This document shows positions 47,267-56,977 of a stretch of 64,000 bases of DNA, piece by piece; the stretch's first letter is position 1; every line of letters begins with the position of its first letter. The stretch is taken from NCBI GenBank assembly GCA_003167215.1, contig PMTV01000049.1:298-64297 (forward strand), given 5' to 3'. The notes below the pieces were generated by a model that did no database searches, had not been told where the DNA came from, and saw only the letters and a program-made list of their open reading frames with translations. The DNA comes from Acidobacteriota bacterium (GTDB lineage Bacteria > Acidobacteriota > Terriglobia > Acidiferrales > UBA7541). A program made the translations under genes and the position numbers.

Positions 47267-48982
47267 ATGCTGAGGATCATATCGTCCTTTAAATTGCAAA
47301 TCGGTTTTTGCGCGCTGGCCTTGGTGCTGGGGTCGCATCCTTGCTTCGCACAAACAAGCGGCCAAGCCTCCGGTCAACAGGCGAGCGCTGCGGATCAGCA
47401 AATACCCCCGGCCGTGGCGAAGAAGCTTGAGGCGATGGAAGCACGCATCGAGCAACTGGAAGCGGAGCTGAAGGCTCGTCCCGCGGAAGCGCCGCTATCG
47501 CCAAAAGCTTCGGCACCTGTCCCGTCTGCTCCTCCGGTAGCAACGTCCTCTTCCAGTACAGCAGCGACCTCCGCACCATTAACTGCGCAAGCGCAAAGCG
47601 AGCCAACGGCCGCGCAAACCCCCGCTGCCGCGGGCGGTAAAGTAGAGCCGTTTTCGGATGCGGACTGGACTTGGTTAAACGGCAATCCCCGCACTAAGGA
47701 TATATATTGGGACACGAAATTCTTTACGCCAGAGATCAGAACTGACACCGACTATGTTTTCGACTTCAACCATCCGACGGACCACTCGATGGGCGGCTCA
47801 AGTGAGCTTTTCCGGTCGCAAGAAGTCCAACTGGAGCAACTCGGGATCGGCGGCGACTTCCACTATGACAATGTTCGCGCCAGATTTATGACCCAGTTCG
47901 GCATGTATTCGGTGACCACGCCTCGGAATGACCCCAGCCCCGGGCATGGTCAATGGGATCTCGCCGATGCGTACCGCTACATATCAGAAGCATATGGTGG
48001 ATATCACTTCAACGTACTGGACGGGATCAACGTTGACGCCGGGATTTTCATGTCCTATGTCGGCCTGTTCAGTTACTACAACTTCGATAATTGGGCCTAT
48101 CAACCCTCCTACGTTTCCTCCAACACTCCATGGTTTTTCAATGGCGTGCGCGTACAAATTTTTCCCACGAAACATCTGAAGATTGAGCCCTGGTTCATCA
48201 ATGGTTGGCAAGCGTACGCCTCGGCCAATCACACACCGGGTCTCGGAGGCCAGCTCAAATGGACTCCCACAAGCTACATCAACGTCATCTCCAACAATTA
48301 TGGCTTGGGTGAGGATGACCTATTCGTTCCCCACCGAAAGCGCATCCACACCGACAACAGTATTGAGGTCAAGTACTACGACCGGCCGGGCCGGACGCTC
48401 GACAAGATGGCGTTCACACTCACAGGCGATTTGGGTTGTGAATACGGCAGTGGCGTAAGCTGCTACGGCGATCACAAAGGCGGACCCAAGCAGAGCTTCG
48501 TGGGATTCATGCTGTACAACCGCTTCTGGTTCCACAAAGACCTATTCGCCATAACGCTTGGTGGTGGAAAGATCAACAATCCGGGACGATATTTGGTACT
48601 GCTTCCGCCGATCAATGGAGAGACCGCCATTACGGCCTCGACGAATTCTCCATACTTTACGGAGAACCCTGGGAATCCCTTTAAAGCCTGGGATTCGTCA
48701 TTCACGTTTGACTACATGCCCAAGCAATACGTCACTTTTCGCTGGGAGTACGATTATCGCCACGCGAATGTGCCGTACTGGTCTGGCCGCGGCGGGATTA
48801 CGCCTCCCGGTGGGAATAACAACTTTCCCCAATTCTACGCCTGCAGTAACGGTTCCTCGTCCGGGCAAACAAGCCTGGGCCCGGCGGAAACGGCCTGCGG
48901 CGGCGGACTCAGTAGCGTGTGGTTCCCGGATCTTCGCAGGGATGAATCGTTTATTGATATGTCCATCATGGTGAAATTCTAG
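47267..48982 (+). CDS. OmpL-like beta-barrel porin of the kdp block
   Basis: 571 residues: signal peptide (FCALALVLGSHPCFAQ), a coiled coil (VAKKLEAMEARIEQLEAELK, about 47-70), a Ser/Ala/Pro linker and a barrel of the BBP2/OmpL type with many aromatic alternating strands (YISEAYGGYHFNVL, FVGFMLYNRFWFHKD) ending in MSIMVKF with a terminal Phe. GGGAGAAAA lies before the ATG. It is followed 48 bp later by the small peptide gene and kdpFABC in the same direction, suggesting outer-membrane entry for the solute pumped by Kdp. Confidence 0.88.
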   Translation: MLRIISSFKLQIGFCALALVLGSHPCFAQTSGQASGQQASAADQQIPPAVAKKLEAMEARIEQLEAELKARPAEAPLSPKASAPVPSAPPVATSSSSTAATSAPLTAQAQSEPTAAQTPAAAGGKVEPFSDADWTWLNGNPRTKDIYWDTKFFTPEIRTDTDYVFDFNHPTDHSMGGSSELFRSQEVQLEQLGIGGDFHYDNVRARFMTQFGMYSVTTPRNDPSPGHGQWDLADAYRYISEAYGGYHFNVLDGINVDAGIFMSYVGLFSYYNFDNWAYQPSYVSSNTPWFFNGVRVQIFPTKHLKIEPWFINGWQAYASANHTPGLGGQLKWTPTSYINVISNNYGLGEDDLFVPHRKRIHTDNSIEVKYYDRPGRTLDKMAFTLTGDLGCEYGSGVSCYGDHKGGPKQSFVGFMLYNRFWFHKDLFAITLGGGKINNPGRYLVLLPPINGETAITASTNSPYFTENPGNPFKAWDSSFTFDYMPKQYVTFRWEYDYRHANVPYWSGRGGITPPGGNNNFPQFYACSNGSSSGQTSLGPAETACGGGLSSVWFPDLRRDESFIDMSIMVKF

Positions 48983-49030: not shown

Positions 49031-49117
49031 ATGCGCGATTTTATTTTTGTGATGTGCACGATTGGTTTTTTCGTCGCGGCGATTGTGTACGTGTGGGGCT
49101 GTGACCGGCTGAAGTAA
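49031..49117 (+). CDS. 28-residue membrane peptide between porin and kdpF
   Basis: ATG 49031 to TAA 49117, preceded by GGAGGAG at nine bases. The peptide is one membrane segment (FIFVMCTIGFFVAAIVYVWG) with a short polar CDRLK end. It is as long as KdpF but different in sequence, and kdpF itself starts 12 bp later. The strong SD, tight spacing and lack of any other reading make it a likely real gene and a second small Kdp-associated subunit. Confidence 0.7.
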   Translation: MRDFIFVMCTIGFFVAAIVYVWGCDRLK

Positions 49118-49129
49118 GGAGTACATGAA

Positions 49130-49216
49130 ATGACGGGGAATGTAATTTTATTGGGAGTTTGCGTGCTGTTGCTCGCTTACCTGGTGGCGGCGCTGCTCTG
49201 GCCGGAGAAATTTTAA
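49130..49216 (+). CDS. kdpF: Potassium-transporting ATPase small subunit KdpF
   Basis: 28 residues: one membrane helix (VILLGVCVLLLAYLVAALLWPEKF) ending in the WPE-F signature that is typical for KdpF. It stabilises the KdpFABC complex in the membrane. An AAGGAG SD lies nine bases before the ATG; the stop is two bases before the kdpA start. Confidence 0.93.
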   Translation: MTGNVILLGVCVLLLAYLVAALLWPEKF

Positions 49217-49218
49217 TT

Positions 49219-50991
49219 ATGACTGCGAATGGCTGGTTTCAAATCGGACTTTTTTTGCTCATTATTTTTGCGTTGACCAAGCCGATGGGCGTTTTTATGG
49301 CTCGCGTATTCGACGGGGGGAAAACATTTCTCGACCCGATGTTGCGTCCGCTCGAGCGATTGCTGTACCGCGTCACCGGCGTGGACGATACGAGAGAAAT
49401 GCGCTGGACGGAATACGCGATAGCCATGCTTCTTTTCAGCGGCGTATCCATGGTCGTTCTCTATCTGATCCAGCGTTTCCAGGCCTGGCTGCCATGGAAT
49501 CCCCAACACTGGACGAACGTGGCCCCGGATTTGGCGTTTAACACCGCCGCGTCGTTTACGACGAATACGAACTGGCAAGCCTATTCGGGCGAAACGACGA
49601 TGAGTTATTTCACCCAGATGGCCGGGCTTGCCTATCACAATTTCATGTCCGCTGCGACAGGGATAGCCCTGGCGATAGCTGTGATCCGCGGCATTGCCCG
49701 GCGCGAGAAAGAGACCCTCGGAAACTTTTGGGTGGATCTCACACGCGCAATCTTGTGGGTTCTGCTGCCCGCTTGCATTGTGATTGCATTGTTTTTCGTA
49801 TCACAAGGAATGATTCAGAATTTCAAGCCGTACGTCACCACACAGCTTTTGGATCCGCAGACCGTGCAAGTAACCGGCGCGGACGGAAAAACGACACAAC
49901 AGCGAATAACCGAGCAATTGATTCCCCAGGGTCCGGTGGCATCCCAGGAAGTTATCAAGATGTTCGGCACGAACGGAGGTGGGTTTTTCAACGCCAATAG
50001 CGCGCACCCCTATGAGAATCCCAATCCGCTCACGAACTTCATTCAGATAATCCTAATTTTCGCCATTCCCGCGGGACTTACCTACACGCTGGGCCGCATG
50101 ACCGGCTCGCAGAAGCACGGATGGGCGGTGTGGAGCGCCATGGCCGCGCTCTTTGTTGCCGGCGTGATCTGCGCTTACACGGCGGAATCGAGAGGAAATC
50201 CGCTACTTCACGGCACGGACCAAAAAGTAAGCGCCACTCAGCCGGGCGGCAATATGGAAGGAAAAGAGGTGCGCTTCGGGATCGCGAATTCAGCGCTCTT
50301 TGCCACAGTAACGACAGATGCAAGCTGCGGGGCGGTGAACGGGATGCACGATTCCTTCACGCCGCTCGGCGGAATGATACCGCTGATTAACATGATGCTG
50401 GGCGAAGTGGTATTCGGGGGAGTGGGCGCCGGACTCTACGGCGTACTGGTGATGGTAATCCTGGCCGTATTCATCGCTGGATTGATGGTTGGTCGAACGC
50501 CCGAATATCTCGGCAAGAAAATCGAAGCATACGACGTGAAAATGGCCATGCTTTCGGTGCTCATTTTCTCTCTGATCATACTTATTTTCACGGCCATCGG
50601 AGTAGTGACCTCCTACGGAAAAGCCGGCATTTCAAATCCCGGGCCTCATGGATTATCCCAGATTTTGTACGCCTACACGTCGGGAGCGGCGAATAACGGA
50701 TCGGCATTCGGTGGAGGAAACTGGAATTCGCTTTGGTACAACGTCACCATGTCGTTCGACATGTTGCTTGGAAGATTTTTCATGGTTATTCCCGTGCTGG
50801 CGATTGCAGGGAGTCTGGCGCGAAAGAAAATCGTGCCGGAATCCGCTGGGACTTTCCCGGTAACTACGCCCTTATTCTCGGCTCTGTTGGTTTCGGTCGT
50901 CCTGATCGTCAGTGCGCTGACGTTTTTCCCGGCCCTTAGTCTGGGGCCGATTCTGGAGCACTTATTGATGAACGCTGGAAAGGTCTTTTAA
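49219..50991 (+). CDS. kdpA: Potassium-transporting ATPase subunit KdpA
   Basis: 590 residues from the ATG at 49219, directly after the kdpF stop (the frame could run 20 codons further upstream into kdpF, but [19 protein letters not shown] is the usual N-terminus). KdpA is the channel-like K+-binding subunit related to Trk/HKT. Selectivity-filter type loops are seen ([50 protein letters not shown]). The GGAGAAA SD overlaps the kdpF end. Confidence 0.97.
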
Positions 50992-50998
50992 GGCTACG

Positions 50999-53047
50999 AT
51001 GACAATTACTTCCAATACAGTAAAGAAATCTCTCTGGACCTCCGGAATTATCGGCGTTGCCGTGAAGGATTCATTCGTAAAGCTGAATCCTCGCACGCTG
51101 ATGAAGAACCCGGTCATGTTCGTGGTGGAGGTGGGGTCCGTCGTCACTAGCGTCGGGCTCATAAGCGATTTGGTGCGCCACAACGGCAACTTCGGATTCG
51201 AGCTTCAGATCACGCTGTGGCTCTGGTTCACGGTCCTCTTTGCGAATTTCGCCGAAGCCATGGCTGAGGGACGTGGAAAGGCTCAGGCCGAAACGTTGCG
51301 CAAAGCTCGCCTGGAAACAATGGCCAAGCGGATGAAACCGGACGGCACCTTGGAAGAGGTCTCCGGGTCGAAGTTGAGAGTCGGAGACTTAGTGGTCATT
51401 GCTGCGGGAGAATTCATACCCGGAGACGGCGAAGTGGTAGTCGGCGTGGCCTCGGTGGACGAATCCGCTATCACCGGAGAATCCGCTCCAGTCATCCGCG
51501 AGTCCGGCGGCGACCGCTCGGCGGTCACCGGTGGGACGCGCGTGCTCTCCGATCAAATCACCGTGAAAATCACAGCGAATCCGGGAGAAACATTCCTGGA
51601 TAGAATGATCAAGCTTGTCGAGGGCGCCGAGCGCCAGAAAACTCCGAACGAAATTGCCCTCAATATTCTCCTCGCCGGACTGACAATTATTTTCCTGCTC
51701 GCCGTGGTCACACTTCAGCCCATGGCTATTTATAGCGGCGCTCCTCAATCGGTCTTCGTTTTGATCGCGTTGCTGGTCTGCTTGATTCCTACCACTATCG
51801 GCGGGCTGCTATCCGCCATCGGAATCGCGGGAATGGACCGCGTGGTGCAGAGGAACGTGCTTGCAATGTCGGGAAGGGCCGTAGAAGCGGCGGGGGATGT
51901 GGACACTTTGCTGCTCGACAAGACCGGCACAATCACGCTGGGGAATCGTCGCGCAACAGAACTCGTTCCGGCACCCGGCGTGAAGGAACAAGACCTTGCG
52001 GATGCAGCGCAACTTGCTTCGCTGGCTGACGAGACTCCGGAAGGTCGCTCGATCGTCGTTCTGGCCAAGGAAAAATACAACCTGCGCGGCCGGGAGCTTT
52101 CGTCCTACGCCGCTACCTTTATTCCATTTTCCGCGCAAACCAGAATGTCAGGAGTAGATCTCGACGGGCGCGAAATCCGCAAAGGCGCTCCGGACGCCAT
52201 CCTTCAATACTGTGCTCAGCCCGGCGGCCGCGCTCCAGTTGAGGTGGAAGAAACGGTCAAGGCGATTTCAAATGCCGGAGGCACGCCGCTGCTGGTGGCG
52301 GAAGATCGCCGCGTGCTGGGAACCATCTACCTGAAGGATATCGTGAAAGGCGGGATGCGCGAACGGTTCGATCAACTGCGCGCGATGGGAATTCGAACGG
52401 TGATGATTACCGGCGATAATCCGCTGACGGCGGCTGCCATTGCGCGAGAGGCCGGGGTGGATGATTTTCTGGCGCAAGCGAAACCCGAGGACAAACTTGC
52501 GCTGATTCGCCGCGAGCAGGCCAAAGGCAAACTAGTAGCTATGACGGGAGACGGCACAAATGACGCTCCCGCATTGGCTCAAGCGGACGTCGGCGTGGCC
52601 ATGAACGCGGGAACGCAAGCCGCAAAAGAAGCCGGCAACATGGTCGATCTCGATTCCAATCCCACGAAGTTGATCGAGATTGTGGAAATCGGCAAGCAAC
52701 TGCTGATCACTCGAGGCGCGCTGACGACGTTTTCTGTTGCCAATGACGTCGCAAAATATTTCGCCATCATTCCGGCGATGTTTGCAGGAGCATTCCCGCA
52801 ACTCGGCGTACTGAACGTGATGAGTTTGAAGACGCCGCAGTCGGCCGTGCTTTCCGCGGTGATTTTCAATGCGCTGATTATTATCGCTCTGGTCCCGCTT
52901 GCTCTGCGGGGCGTGAAGTACGTCCCGGCGGGCGCGGAAGAACTGCTGCGCCGAAATCTGTTGATCTATGGACTGGGAGGCGTGATCGCCCCATTTCTGG
53001 GAATCAAGTTGATTGACGAGATCATCACTCATATTGGTCTGGCATGA
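50999..53047 (+). CDS. kdpB: Potassium-transporting P-type ATPase subunit KdpB
   Basis: 682 residues, P-type ATPase. The phosphorylated Asp307 lies in [14 protein letters not shown], the same number as in E. coli KdpB. Other signatures are TGES in the actuator domain ([12 protein letters not shown]), KGAPDAIL in the nucleotide domain and [18 protein letters not shown] in the P-domain. Energises K+ uptake with KdpA. Seven bases after kdpA. Confidence 0.98.
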
Positions 53048-53054
53048 GGACAAC

Positions 53055-53630
53055 GTGAAAAGAAATCTGCTGATTTCGATTTGGATGACACTGGCTACCA
53101 CGGTGCTTCTCGGGATCGTCTATCCGCTGGTCGTCACCGGACTTGCCCAGGTGCTATATCCCCGCCGGGCAAACGGAGAACTGATTGAGTCTCGCGGCAA
53201 GCTGGTGGGTTCGCGTCTGATTGGACAGCCCTTCACGTCTCCGGGCTATTTTCATTCCAGGCCTTCCGCGGCAGGTCCGGCAGGCTACGATCCCACGCAA
53301 TCGGGCGGATCGAATCTCGCTCCCACAAATAAAGCGTTGCTCGACCGCGTTTCTGCAAGCGTGCAGACGCTGCACGCCGAGAATCCAAACGCCCCGATCC
53401 CGATCGATCTGGTCACCGCATCGGCGTCCGGCTTGGATCCGGACATCTCCCCGGCTGCGGCAGAGTTTCAGATTCCTCGCGTGGCAAAAGAACGCAAGAT
53501 GAATCAGGACGACCTGCGAGCGCTCGTGCAGCAGCACACCGAGCAACGCCAGTTCGGATTTCTTGGCGAGCCGCGTGTAAATGTTCTCGGACTTAATCTG
53601 GAACTAGACCAAATTCACGCGATACAATGA
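53055..53630 (+). CDS. kdpC: Potassium-transporting ATPase subunit KdpC
   Basis: 191 residues starting with GTG at 53055, chosen because GAGGA lies four bases upstream and the frame would otherwise begin inside kdpB. A single N-terminal membrane segment (TTVLLGIVYPLVVTGLAQ), then the periplasmic domain with GSRLIGQPFTSPGYFHSRPSA and SGLDPDISPAAAEFQIPRVAK, both typical. It stabilises and stimulates KdpB. Ends 16 bp from the convergent kdpE stop. Confidence 0.96.
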   Translation: MKRNLLISIWMTLATTVLLGIVYPLVVTGLAQVLYPRRANGELIESRGKLVGSRLIGQPFTSPGYFHSRPSAAGPAGYDPTQSGGSNLAPTNKALLDRVSASVQTLHAENPNAPIPIDLVTASASGLDPDISPAAAEFQIPRVAKERKMNQDDLRALVQQHTEQRQFGFLGEPRVNVLGLNLELDQIHAIQ

Positions 53631-53646
53631 ATATTATTTTTCCGGA

Positions 53647-54345
53647 TCAGTGGTCAGTGGCTTGCGGCGGATTGAATTTATACCCGACCCAGGGCTCCGT
53701 GTGGATGTAGCGAGGCTTGCGCGGATCCGGCTCGATCTTTTTTCTCAGTTGATTGATGAATACACGCAGGTACTCCGTTTCTTCGCCGTAATCCGGCCCC
53801 CACACGGCCTGTAGCAGGCGGCGATGCCCCAGCGTCTTTCCCTGATTTGCAACGAGATGCCGCAGCAGCTCGAACTCTTTTGGAGTAAGCCGAACCGGAT
53901 TGTTCTTCACCATGACCACGCGTTTTTCGAAGTCAATCTGGAGATCGTCCGTCAGGAAGGGCGGCGCGGCATCGCCAGGCGCGCTCCGCCTGAGCGCGGC
54001 GCGGATGCGCGCCATTAATTCCTGCACACCGAAGGGCTTCACTACGTAGTCGTCCGCGCCGGCGTCGAGCGCCTGCACTTTGTCACGTTCGCTGTTTCGG
54101 ATGGTGAGCATGATGATGGGCACGTCGCTGGAAGTCCGGATTTCCGCGCAGGTTTCAATGCCTGAAATTCCCGGCATGTTCACATCGAGGATAATAAGGT
54201 CAGGCCGCTCAGCGCGAAGCTTTTCGAGAGCTTCCTCTCCGCTGGCGGCTTCTACAACGGTATAACCGTGCGAAGTAAGGGTGGTGAGCATGACGCGGCG
54301 AATTTGGGGTTCGTCGTCAACGATCAGAATGGTCGCGGTGCTCAT
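53647..54345 (-). CDS. kdpE: KdpE response regulator
   Basis: 232 residues: receiver domain with acidic pocket DDE (10-12), phosphorylated Asp54 in ILDVNMPG and switch Lys in VVKPFG, followed by an OmpR/PhoB-type winged helix (FELLRHLVANQGKTLGHRRLL...RVFINQLRKKIEPDP). It should activate the adjacent kdp genes. Its ATG overlaps the stop of the kinase gene by four bases (ATGA). Confidence 0.95.
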   Translation of the reverse strand: MSTATILIVDDEPQIRRVMLTTLTSHGYTVVEAASGEEALEKLRAERPDLIILDVNMPGISGIETCAEIRTSSDVPIIMLTIRNSERDKVQALDAGADDYVVKPFGVQELMARIRAALRRSAPGDAAPPFLTDDLQIDFEKRVVMVKNNPVRLTPKEFELLRHLVANQGKTLGHRRLLQAVWGPDYGEETEYLRVFINQLRKKIEPDPRKPRYIHTEPWVGYKFNPPQATDH

Positions 54346-55811
54346 GAGCTTCCCGGGCGTGTGTGATCGATCGGCAACGTGAAGGAGAAGACGGAACCTT
54401 GGCCACGCTGGCTGGTTAGGTTCATCGATCCTCCATGAGCCACCACGATTGCTTTGGCAATCGGCAGGCCCATTCCTGTTCCCTGAACCAAGAAGCGCTG
54501 ATCCTTGCCGCGATAAAATTTCTCAAAGATCAGGCTTTGCTCCAGGTCGTCGATTCCGGCGCCGCGATCGGCCACGCTGGTGGCCAGAAAATCTCCGCTT
54601 AGCTCCGCCGTAATCGTAATGGGTTCGTCGGCTGGGGAGTATTGATTGGCGTTCTCAATTAGATGCGAAAGAGCCTCTTTCACCAGCTCGAGATCAACTC
54701 GAACGCGCGGAAGTCCGGTCGCAACCACGACTCGCACCGTGCGATTGCCCAGTGTGGACTTGCATCGGATCAAAGCGGCGTCAATCACGTTTTCGATGGA
54801 TGTGGATTCAAACTTGAGCTGCACTTCGCCCGCATCGAGACGTGCCATCTCGGCGGCTTCGCCAACCAGCCGGTTCAACCGGTCGCTTTCTTCATTGATG
54901 ACGACGAGAAGATCTTGCCGTTGCGCGTCGCTAAGCCCCGCGTTGGTCAAAAGGTTTGTCACCGAAGCTTTAATCGACGTGAGCGGAGTTCGCAGGTTGT
55001 GCGTGACCGACTCAGTCAGAGCCGTACGCAAACGCTCGCCCTCGCGCGTGGCTTCGGTTTGTCCCAGTTGCTCGATCGCACGGGCACGCTCCATGGCCAC
55101 GGCGATCAACGTACCGATAGCCTCCAGCGTTTGGCGGGAAAGAGTCGACCCCGAAATTCCCAGGCTGCCGATCGGGCGTACCCCTAGCCGAACCGGAACG
55201 AAGCAGAGACTGTTCGGAACGTCAATCACGGGCTCTTCACGAGCCACGATGGCTTTCAGGCTGTCGATATCCAGGCGCGGGATCACCGGGCCTGAGCGGT
55301 ACACTTTCTGTTTTTCGGAGAGCAACAAAGCCGCTGCGCCCACTTCAAACGTATTCACAATCTGCGCAGGAATTCGGTTGAGTAGCTGAATCACGTTGCC
55401 GGATTCGAGCAGACCCTGGCTGAAGGCATATAATTTTTCGATCTCTCGCCTTCGCGCGGAAGCGTCTTCAGCCTTTTGGCGCGCGCGTGTGGATAGAGTG
55501 CTGGCAATGACGGAAACCACGAGGAAAGCGAAAAGTGCGACCCAGTTCTGCGGATCGGCAACCGTGAATTTTCCTACTGGCGGAAGGAAGTAATAATTGA
55601 ATGCCAGCATTGCCGCGATGGACATAAACACCGAGACGGGAATGCCCCAAACCGTGGAAACGGCTAAAATAGCGAGAAGAAATGTAAGAGCAACGGTAGT
55701 GGGATTGACCGGAAGCACGCGGCGGTAGAATAGGGAAATTCCGAGAACCAGACCTAAAGCCGCTGCAAACCTGAGAAAACGGTAGAGAAATGGCTCGCGC
55801 ACGTATGCCAT
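54342..55811 (-). CDS. KdpD C-terminal half: DUF4118-GAF-histidine kinase
   Basis: 489 residues. Four membrane segments of the DUF4118 domain (about 11-110, with FNYYFLPPVGKFTVADPQNW) are followed by a GAF domain (about 130-245), HisKA with His271 in THNLRTPL and a HATPase domain with N-box NANQYSP and GTGMGLPIAKAIV. This is the kinase part of KdpD without the N-terminal KdpD and USP domains, which are encoded by the neighbouring divergent gene. It should phosphorylate KdpE, with which it overlaps. The start ATG lies 45 bp from the most likely start of the divergent gene. Confidence 0.92.
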   Translation of the reverse strand: MAYVREPFLYRFLRFAAALGLVLGISLFYRRVLPVNPTTVALTFLLAILAVSTVWGIPVSVFMSIAAMLAFNYYFLPPVGKFTVADPQNWVALFAFLVVSVIASTLSTRARQKAEDASARRREIEKLYAFSQGLLESGNVIQLLNRIPAQIVNTFEVGAAALLLSEKQKVYRSGPVIPRLDIDSLKAIVAREEPVIDVPNSLCFVPVRLGVRPIGSLGISGSTLSRQTLEAIGTLIAVAMERARAIEQLGQTEATREGERLRTALTESVTHNLRTPLTSIKASVTNLLTNAGLSDAQRQDLLVVINEESDRLNRLVGEAAEMARLDAGEVQLKFESTSIENVIDAALIRCKSTLGNRTVRVVVATGLPRVRVDLELVKEALSHLIENANQYSPADEPITITAELSGDFLATSVADRGAGIDDLEQSLIFEKFYRGKDQRFLVQGTGMGLPIAKAIVVAHGGSMNLTSQRGQGSVFSFTLPIDHTRPGSS

Positions 55812-55855
55812 TCTATCGTAGCTTTACCACTCGCTCGCAGAAGAGATTAAACGGA

Positions 55856-56977
55856 ATGCCAAAGACTCCTGAAGAATGGCTGGCGGTATCGAAGCCGCCG
55901 GAAAAAACCAAGGGCATATTGAAGCTGTTTCTAGGCTATGCGCCCGGCGTTGGAAAAACGTACAGCATGCTGAGCGAGGCCATCCGGAGAAAGGGCCGGG
56001 GAGAAGACCTTGCGATCGGTGTGGTGGAGACGCACGGCAGAAAAGGCATCGCGGAATTGGTGCCTCAATTGGAGAGCATCCCGCGCCGCAAAATCGATTA
56101 CAAAGGCACAATTTTTGAAGAGATGGATACGGATGCGATCATCGCGCGAAATCCGCAGGTGGTTTTGGTGGACGAGCTAGCCCACACAAACATTCCCGGC
56201 AGCAAGCATCGCAAGCGCTATGAGGACGTGCTCGAACTCATCGAGGCGAAGATCGACGTTCTCTCAACTTTAAACATTCAGCACATCGAAAGCATTGCGC
56301 CCACCGTGCGGGCCATTACCGGAGTGCAAGTACGCGAAACCGTGCCGGATTGGGTCCTGCAAATGGCGGACGAAACGGTAATGATCGATTTGACTCCCGA
56401 GGCTCTGCAGAACCGCATGAAGCGTGGCGACGTTTACGGCGGCGAAAAAGTGGAACAAGCGCTTAAGAATTTTTTTCGCCGCGGTAACCTGATCGCTTTG
56501 CGCGAACTGGCCCTGCGTCAAGTGGCGGAACAAGTGGATCGCAGCTTGGAGTCCTACATGGTGGAAAAGGACATCCGCGAAAGCTGGGCTGTTCGCGAAC
56601 GCATCGCGGTGTGCATCAGCGGCAATCCGAAAGCGCAGTATCTGGTGGCGCGGGCAGCGCGCATGGCGCGTCGGATGGATGCGGAACTCTACGCCATCCA
56701 TGTTGACGATCGCCCAGTGGACGAACAGAGCGAGAAAGCCCTCGTTGCAAACTTGCAATTTGCGGAAAGCTTGGGCGCCAAGCCGGTGCGCCTGAAAGGC
56801 GAAAATATTGCCGACGCCACGGCGCAATTCGTGCGAGACAAACACGTAACCCAGGTAATTTTCGGCCGCTCGGCGGTTGAGGGCTGGCGGAAACTGCGTT
56901 ACATGAACGCCATCAATCGGTTCTTACGCGATGCGCCCGCGGTAGATGTTCACATCGTGACGCAAGAACCCGATTAG
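55856..56977 (+). CDS. KdpD N-terminal half: KdpD sensor domain plus USP domain
   Basis: 373 residues from the ATG at 55856, matched to the usual KdpD N-terminus about 20 residues before the core; upstream ATGs at 55790 and 55805 would overlap the divergent kinase gene. The KdpD domain carries Walker A GYAPGVGKT (27-35), VVETHGRKG, Walker B-like VVLVDELAHTN and the STLNIQHIESIAPTV segment. A USP-type domain starts near residue 230 (IAVCISGNPKAQYLVARAARMARRM) with GRSAVEGWRK near the end. It lacks any membrane or kinase domain and must act on the separately encoded kinase, perhaps binding nucleotides or c-di-AMP. Confidence 0.9.
   Translation: MPKTPEEWLAVSKPPEKTKGILKLFLGYAPGVGKTYSMLSEAIRRKGRGEDLAIGVVETHGRKGIAELVPQLESIPRRKIDYKGTIFEEMDTDAIIARNPQVVLVDELAHTNIPGSKHRKRYEDVLELIEAKIDVLSTLNIQHIESIAPTVRAITGVQVRETVPDWVLQMADETVMIDLTPEALQNRMKRGDVYGGEKVEQALKNFFRRGNLIALRELALRQVAEQVDRSLESYMVEKDIRESWAVRERIAVCISGNPKAQYLVARAARMARRMDAELYAIHVDDRPVDEQSEKALVANLQFAESLGAKPVRLKGENIADATAQFVRDKHVTQVIFGRSAVEGWRKLRYMNAINRFLRDAPAVDVHIVTQEPD

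What the first reader, a model, noticed from the sequence alone, without database searches (positions are those of the whole stretch)
54342..56977. KdpD split into two divergently transcribed genes
The KdpD/USP sensor half and the DUF4118-GAF-kinase half are separate genes on opposite strands with start codons only 44-45 bp apart (or overlapping if upstream ATGs are used). The halves must interact in trans, so sensor and kinase levels can be set independently, and one shared control region could serve both.
Basis: partly seen in the sequence, partly recalled or inferred. Interest (0 to 1): 0.6.

Follow-up and report, generated by a model that had tools for sequence, protein, structure and literature searches.

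The report
Split potassium sensor, head-to-head halves
In this soil acidobacterium the two working parts of the potassium-sensing protein KdpD are separate proteins made from back-to-back genes; the split was already known in this phylum, but the conserved back-to-back layout, and the absence of the enzyme that makes the usual controlling signal (c-di-AMP), leave open how the pump-inhibiting half is controlled.

Summary
KdpD-Usp (55856-56977, +) and DUF4118/TM-GAF-like-histidine kinase (54342-55802, -) together cover E. coli KdpD, with all catalytic residues kept, and there is no fused KdpD in the genome. The layout recurs head-to-head in 90 further sampled loci, so it is not an assembly error. 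The split itself is not new: Silberberg et al. 2024 (PMC11018627) name Acidobacteriota as a main home of separate serine-kinase (ASK) and histidine-kinase chains. "Halves must interact in trans" does not follow, because the N half is a self-sufficient serine kinase whose known target is KdpB Ser162, conserved here. What I add: (1) unlike the described split systems, where the ASK gene lies in the pump operon, here it pairs head-to-head with the kinase gene, in one deep clade; (2) the kinase gene looks leaderless, with a -10 box about 6 nt before its start in 71 of 90 loci (about 1 expected), inside a 53-bp gap; (3) the window's genus and a second genus lack diadenylate cyclase (0 of 56 genomes), so the published c-di-AMP control of short KdpD cannot be assumed; (4) this genome has two Kdp pumps but one KdpD-N. 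What controls the ASK is open.

The parts
55856..56977 (+). kdpD-N (ASK chain): KdpD domain + Usp, 373 aa from ATG 55856 (an upstream in-frame ATG 55790 would give 395 aa)
   Evidence: Pfam PF02702 and Usp; Walker A G-X5-GKT, Walker B DE and Arg190 kept, W39 replaced by Tyr; relatives align from about residue 23 of the long ORF
54342..55802 (-). kdpD-C (HK chain): four-TM DUF4118, GAF-like domain, HisKA, HATPase_c; 486 aa from GTG 55802 (489 aa if ATG 55811 is used)
   Evidence: Pfam; His673 equivalent kept; model with TM helices, alpha/beta domain, DHp and CA, histidine-kinase fold matches; leaderless start
55803..55855 (.). 53-bp divergent gap with a conserved non-coding core ATTCTATCGTAGCTTT (55810-55825)
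   Evidence: alignment of 14 genus loci; core variants across family f1; only exact copy in the window
55810..55815 (-). -10-like TAGAAT 7 nt before the HK GTG start (leaderless promoter, predicted)
   Evidence: TA[GCT]AAT 5-8 nt before an in-frame start in 54/62 family f1 and 17/28 family f11 head-to-head loci, shuffles give 0.8 and 0.5
55839..55846 (+). purine-rich stretch before kdpD-N start, possible ribosome site (inference)
   Evidence: conserved position in genus alignment
53647..54345 (-). kdpE response regulator, 232 aa, overlapping the HK stop codon
   Evidence: Pfam Response_reg + Trans_reg_C; best NCBIfam match KdpE, below its cut-off
49219..50991 (+). kdpA (590 aa from ATG 49219)
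   Evidence: PF03814 815 bits; start
50999..53047 (+). kdpB; keeps T159-G160-E161-S162, the ASK target in E. coli
   Evidence: TIGR01497 1084 bits; alignment
53013..53630 (+). kdpC (ORF bounds; the true start probably lies further in, past the kdpB stop)
   Evidence: PF02669 256 bits
49130..49216 (+). kdpF-like 28-aa membrane peptide MTGNVILLGVCVLLLAYLVAALLWPEKF
   Evidence: sequence and translation; name by resemblance and position

Best explanation
It is a split KdpD regulator of the Kdp K+ pump. The kinase chain (TM/GAF-like/DHp/CA) with KdpE switches kdpFABC transcription with K+ supply. The separate KdpD-Usp chain is an atypical serine kinase (ASK) that shuts the pump off after translation by phosphorylating KdpB Ser162. 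The two chains come from a head-to-head gene pair whose starts are 53 bp apart; the kinase mRNA begins at or next to its start codon. Because this lineage has no diadenylate cyclase, the serine kinase is unlikely to be run by the c-di-AMP route shown for Deinococcus; most likely it is gated by contact with the kinase chain (as in fused KdpD) or by another Usp ligand. Shown by sequence here: layout, its conservation, intact catalytic residues and target, missing cyclase. Inferred: the activities, the leaderless mRNA, the gating.
For: Domain content and all E. coli ASK/HK catalytic residues plus KdpB E161-S162 kept; biochemistry of the ASK in PMC11018627, which also reports separate ASK and HK chains mostly in Acidobacteriota and Chloroflexota. 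Head-to-head pair in 91 loci, one change on a 111-row tree; kdpE travels with the kinase in family f1 (54 loci) but with KdpD-N in f11 (27 loci), while the ASK-HK pair stays together. No DAC (PF02457) in the own genome, 0 of 20 in genus g1 and 0 of 36 in g5, also absent from near-complete one-contig f11 genomes with the same pair. -10 box before the kinase start. In E. coli the N-terminal domain contacts the C-terminal part, and truncated KdpDs fail to repress at high K+ (PMC2714519).
Against: No expression, binding or phosphorylation data for any acidobacterial KdpD were found. DAC absence rests largely on MAGs of 55-99% completeness, though also on near-complete f11 genomes. The cyclase is present in 14 of 89 head-to-head genomes, so the pairing did not arise because of its loss. 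The consensus promoter scan found nothing in 55600-56050, which fits a promoter without a -35 but is not support.
Confidence: 0.7

Rival explanations
1. The halves work as a re-assembled full-length KdpD: the N chain binds the C chain and its main job is to set the kinase/phosphatase balance, with little serine-kinase role.
For: The E. coli N-terminal domain interacts with and is needed by the C-terminal part (PMC2714519; Heermann 2000, seen only as a citation in PMC11018627). Conserved pairing with the kinase gene, and with kdpE in f11. No c-di-AMP synthase.
Against: Walker A/B catalytic residues are intact in the head-to-head KdpD-N chains examined and KdpB Ser162 is kept, so kinase activity looks selected. 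Many split systems keep the N chain with the pump instead.
Confidence: 0.25
2. KdpD-N is still controlled by a small ligand in its Usp domain other than c-di-AMP (for example ATP or AMP) and works independently of the kinase chain.
For: The Usp domain is kept; the position of S. aureus Tyr271 is His in 64 of 76 cyclase-less head-to-head loci but in 0 of 15 cyclase-bearing ones, which suggests a changed pocket.
Against: The Tyr/His link is not significant on the tree (1-2 informative pairs of 5). D. radiodurans has Thr there and E. coli Tyr, so the column is not diagnostic.
Confidence: 0.2
3. A recent inversion or an assembly error broke an ordinary kdpD gene.
For: Opposite strands and a break exactly between domains.
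Against: Same layout in 90 further loci; separate clade from fused KdpD.
Confidence: 0.01

Closest known systems
Split KdpD of Acidobacteriota/Chloroflexota (Silberberg et al. 2024, PMC11018627)
   Same: KdpD/Usp serine-kinase chain plus TM/GAF/DHpCA histidine-kinase chain; same phylum
   Different: The passages I read give no gene layout for these phyla and link short KdpD to c-di-AMP; here the genes are head-to-head and the diadenylate cyclase is missing
Deinococcus radiodurans kdp region (Dani et al. 2017, PMC5716572; checked on plasmid MP1)
   Same: KdpD-N and HK+RR are separate; divergent operons with a very short gap
   Different: KdpD-N lies at the end of the kdpBAC operon, and the short divergent gap is between HK and kdpB, not between the two KdpD halves
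Alicyclobacillus acidocaldarius split kdpD in two divergent kdp operons (Schleussinger et al. 2006; known to me here only through its title and remarks in PMC11018627)
   Same: kdpD split, divergent operons
   Different: According to PMC11018627 the ASK chain stays downstream of the pump; the original paper was not available
E. coli KdpD (fused)
   Same: Catalytic residues of both halves
   Different: One 894-aa chain; fused forms are a separate clade

Membership tests
Short KdpD (ASK chain, KdpD/Usp) | KdpD domain with Walker A G-X5-GKT, Walker B DE, adenine-pair aromatic/Arg | tested here: met
   (aromatic is Tyr instead of Trp39)
Short KdpD (ASK chain, KdpD/Usp) | Usp domain follows and no kinase domains | tested here: met
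Short KdpD (ASK chain, KdpD/Usp) | KdpB target Glu161-Ser162 present | tested here: met
   both KdpB copies of the genome
Short KdpD (ASK chain, KdpD/Usp) | serine kinase activity on KdpB | not testable with these tools
   needs protein
c-di-AMP-controlled short KdpD (D. geothermalis type) | a diadenylate cyclase in the genome | tested here: not met
   PF02457: none in own genome, 0/56 in genera g1 and g5
c-di-AMP-controlled short KdpD (D. geothermalis type) | S. aureus-type c-di-AMP motif (A/G/C)XSXSX2N(Y/F), Tyr/Phe at 271 | tested here: inconclusive
   Window has C-I-S-G-N-P-K-A-Q and His at 271, so the motif is absent; but D. radiodurans also lacks it, so it is not diagnostic
KdpD histidine kinase chain | four TM (DUF4118), GAF, HisKA with His, HATPase_c | tested here: met
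   DUF4118, HisKA, HATPase_c by Pfam, His271; GAF only by predicted fold
Deinococcus-type split kdp operon | KdpD-N gene directly downstream of the pump genes | tested here: not met
   kdpE and HK lie between on the other strand; KdpD-N is head-to-head with HK

The most novel reading that the evidence does not exclude
In Terriglobia-type Acidobacteriota the KdpD serine-kinase chain sits not in the pump operon but in a bidirectional unit with the histidine-kinase gene, and has shed c-di-AMP control, so that the separate K+-sensing kinase chain (or a new ligand) gates it in trans; one such serine kinase may serve two Kdp pumps.
Probability: 0.3. Interest if true: 0.55.

Novelty: new variant of a known kind. 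Interest (0 to 1): 0.35.

Why it matters
It is a natural test of a question left open in Silberberg et al. 2024: what controls the KdpD serine kinase when it is not tethered to the K+-sensing domains. The published answer (c-di-AMP) cannot be assumed where the cyclase is absent, so these organisms could reveal a second mode of control, and the two activities of KdpD can be deleted one at a time without truncating a protein.

Tried and rejected
Recent break or assembly inversion: rejected by conservation and tree. Fused KdpD in relative G102 (953-aa open frame): rejected, the frame only runs antisense through the kinase gene (L123). A c-di-AMP riboswitch or other Rfam element near kdp: none in the window (only a tRNA). 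Sigma-70 consensus promoter in the gap: none. The conserved core as a KdpE site shared with kdpFABC: no second exact copy in the window; 3 hits at up to 3 mismatches against 1.0 expected. Tyr271-to-His as proof of lost c-di-AMP binding: dropped as proof, because the independent-pairs test is underpowered and D. radiodurans breaks the rule. Association of head-to-head layout with cyclase absence (75 of 89 genomes without cyclase, against 2 of 27 with KdpD-N next to the pump) has a tiny Fisher p, but the layout arose once on the tree, so p is not meaningful. D. geothermalis plasmid NC_008010 was not held. The 2006 Alicyclobacillus paper was not read (not found by the searches made). No mechanism was found for the tandem KdpD-N pairs.

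Full report
What is there. The window carries kdpF-A-B-C on the + strand (49130-53630), kdpE and a DUF4118 histidine kinase on the - strand (53647-55802), and a stand-alone KdpD/Usp gene on the + strand (55856-56977). The two ORFs named in the finding are real. Aligned to E. coli MG1655 KdpD they cover the protein end to end with the break at the Usp/transmembrane boundary: N half 40% identical, C half 27%. Walker A G36-K37-T38, Walker B D109-E110, R190 and H673 are all kept, W39 is Tyr, and KdpB keeps E161-S162. An AlphaFold model of the kinase chain (mean pLDDT 75) shows four N-terminal helices, an alpha/beta domain where GAF should be, and a DHp/CA core; PDB matches are histidine kinases such as HK853 and WalK. 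The own genome (3.78 Mb, 68 contigs, 95.7% complete) has a single KdpD domain.

Not an artefact. tblastn of the six kdp proteins over loci from other genomes shows the two halves head-to-head in 91 loci including the window: 62 in the window's family f1 (one of them a second, f11-like copy in G110), 28 in f11 and one in f10. Named members include Candidatus Acidiferrales/Acidiferrum MAGs and the isolate Granulicella aggregans. On a 111-row tree the layout changes once; kdpE changes sides once, lying with the kinase in f1 and with KdpD-N in f11. The pair of KdpD halves is thus the stable unit. kdpABC is often elsewhere (for example L082, L084, L167).

Known or new. Silberberg et al. [quoted passage not shown] In D. 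radiodurans, Anabaena and Alicyclobacillus they note that the ASK chain stays downstream of the pump; I verified this order for D. radiodurans MP1, and it is also the usual order in the other acidobacterial families sampled. So the split is known; the head-to-head pairing of the halves is the difference. A tree of 92 KdpD domains puts fused KdpD in one clade (19 of 20 rows) and the head-to-head chains in another, with two changes in all, so this is an old separation, consistent with the authors' idea that fusion came later; direction cannot be read from the tree.

Start sites and promoter. In 14 genus-level loci a non-coding core ATTCTA(N)CGTAGCTTT is largely kept between the genes. Read on the kinase strand it contains TAGAAT, and an in-frame ATG/GTG follows at a fixed 6-7 nt. 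A systematic test found such a -10 box 5-8 nt before an in-frame start in 54 of 62 f1 and 17 of 28 f11 loci, against 0.8 and 0.5 in shuffles. The kinase gene is therefore probably leaderless and starts at GTG 55802. KdpD-N has a purine-rich stretch before ATG 55856; a TAGCTT at 55819-55824 could be its -10 in close relatives only (inference). A generic sigma-70 scan found nothing.

What controls the ASK. [quoted passage not shown] geothermalis) and on most such species having a diadenylate cyclase. In the window's genus no genome has the cyclase domain PF02457 (0 of 20), nor in genus g5 (0 of 36), and most f11 genomes with the pair, including one-contig 99%-complete ones, lack it too. Outside f1 and f11, short KdpD in the phylum sample nearly always comes with the cyclase (about 36 of 37, my count). 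The cyclase is present in 14 head-to-head genomes, so pairing probably came before its loss. The residue matching S. aureus Tyr271 (needed for c-di-AMP binding, PMC4686210, contacts in PMC8214093) is His in the window and in 64 of 76 cyclase-less head-to-head loci, never His in the 15 cyclase-bearing ones; but this is not significant on the tree, and D. radiodurans (Thr) and E. coli (Tyr) show that the column is not diagnostic. I therefore rest on the missing cyclase, not on the motif.

Two pumps, one ASK. The own genome has a second kdp locus on contig C11 (HK2, kdpE2, a KdpF-like peptide, kdpA2, kdpB2, kdpC2), with KdpB2 also keeping TGES, but no KdpD-N. If both pumps are inhibited by serine phosphorylation, the single KdpD-N must act on both in trans. 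This is inference; G018, G024 and G036 also show two KdpA for one KdpD-N, though some of those second copies may belong to other pump types.

Verdict. Observation confirmed; interpretation partly right; a known kind of split system with a distinct, conserved gene layout and an unexplained input. Interest is moderate: the split would not surprise a specialist who has read the 2024 paper, but the missing cyclase makes an open question testable.

Noticed in passing
L031, L032, L045, L050, L053, L057, L058, L068, L131, L141, L164 (tandem KdpD-N pairs, mostly in loci of the type HK-kdpE-kdpABC-KdpD-N1-KdpD-N2); also a single such copy in L061: The first KdpD-N copy lacks the catalytic Walker B Glu in every case seen (DE to DG, DA or DP; E110A kills the E. 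coli kinase according to PMC11018627) while the second keeps it. The five first copies put in the tree form one clade. Looks like a conserved pseudo-serine-kinase next to an active one.
   Followed up: partly
G000 contig C11, about 24-34 kb (L185, L186): Second kdp system in the window's own genome with its own DUF4118 kinase and KdpE but no KdpD-N; a 2-base N gap breaks kdpB2. A stand-alone receiver and a 174-aa ORF with no Pfam hit follow.
   Followed up: partly
window 47267-48982 and L186:10962-12422: A BBP2 (OmpL-like) porin gene lies next to both kdp loci of this genome, upstream of kdpF in one and downstream of kdpC in the other; possibly a linked outer-membrane route for K+.
   Followed up: no
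window 49031-49117: 28-aa membrane peptide MRDFIFVMCTIGFFVAAIVYVWGCDRLK just before kdpF; a similar one (MDILFVFATVGFFAIGIAYVFGCEKLK) precedes kdpF of the second locus. Possibly a further small Kdp-linked protein.
   Followed up: no
family f1 genomes: Within the family, genomes without any KdpD domain outside the window's genus and g5 often have the diadenylate cyclase, and most with KdpD lack it; phylogenetically clustered, not tested further.
   Followed up: partly
L041:2058-3835 and G019:C92: kdpA broken into two frames in some MAGs (G017, G019), either frameshifts or sequencing errors.
   Followed up: no
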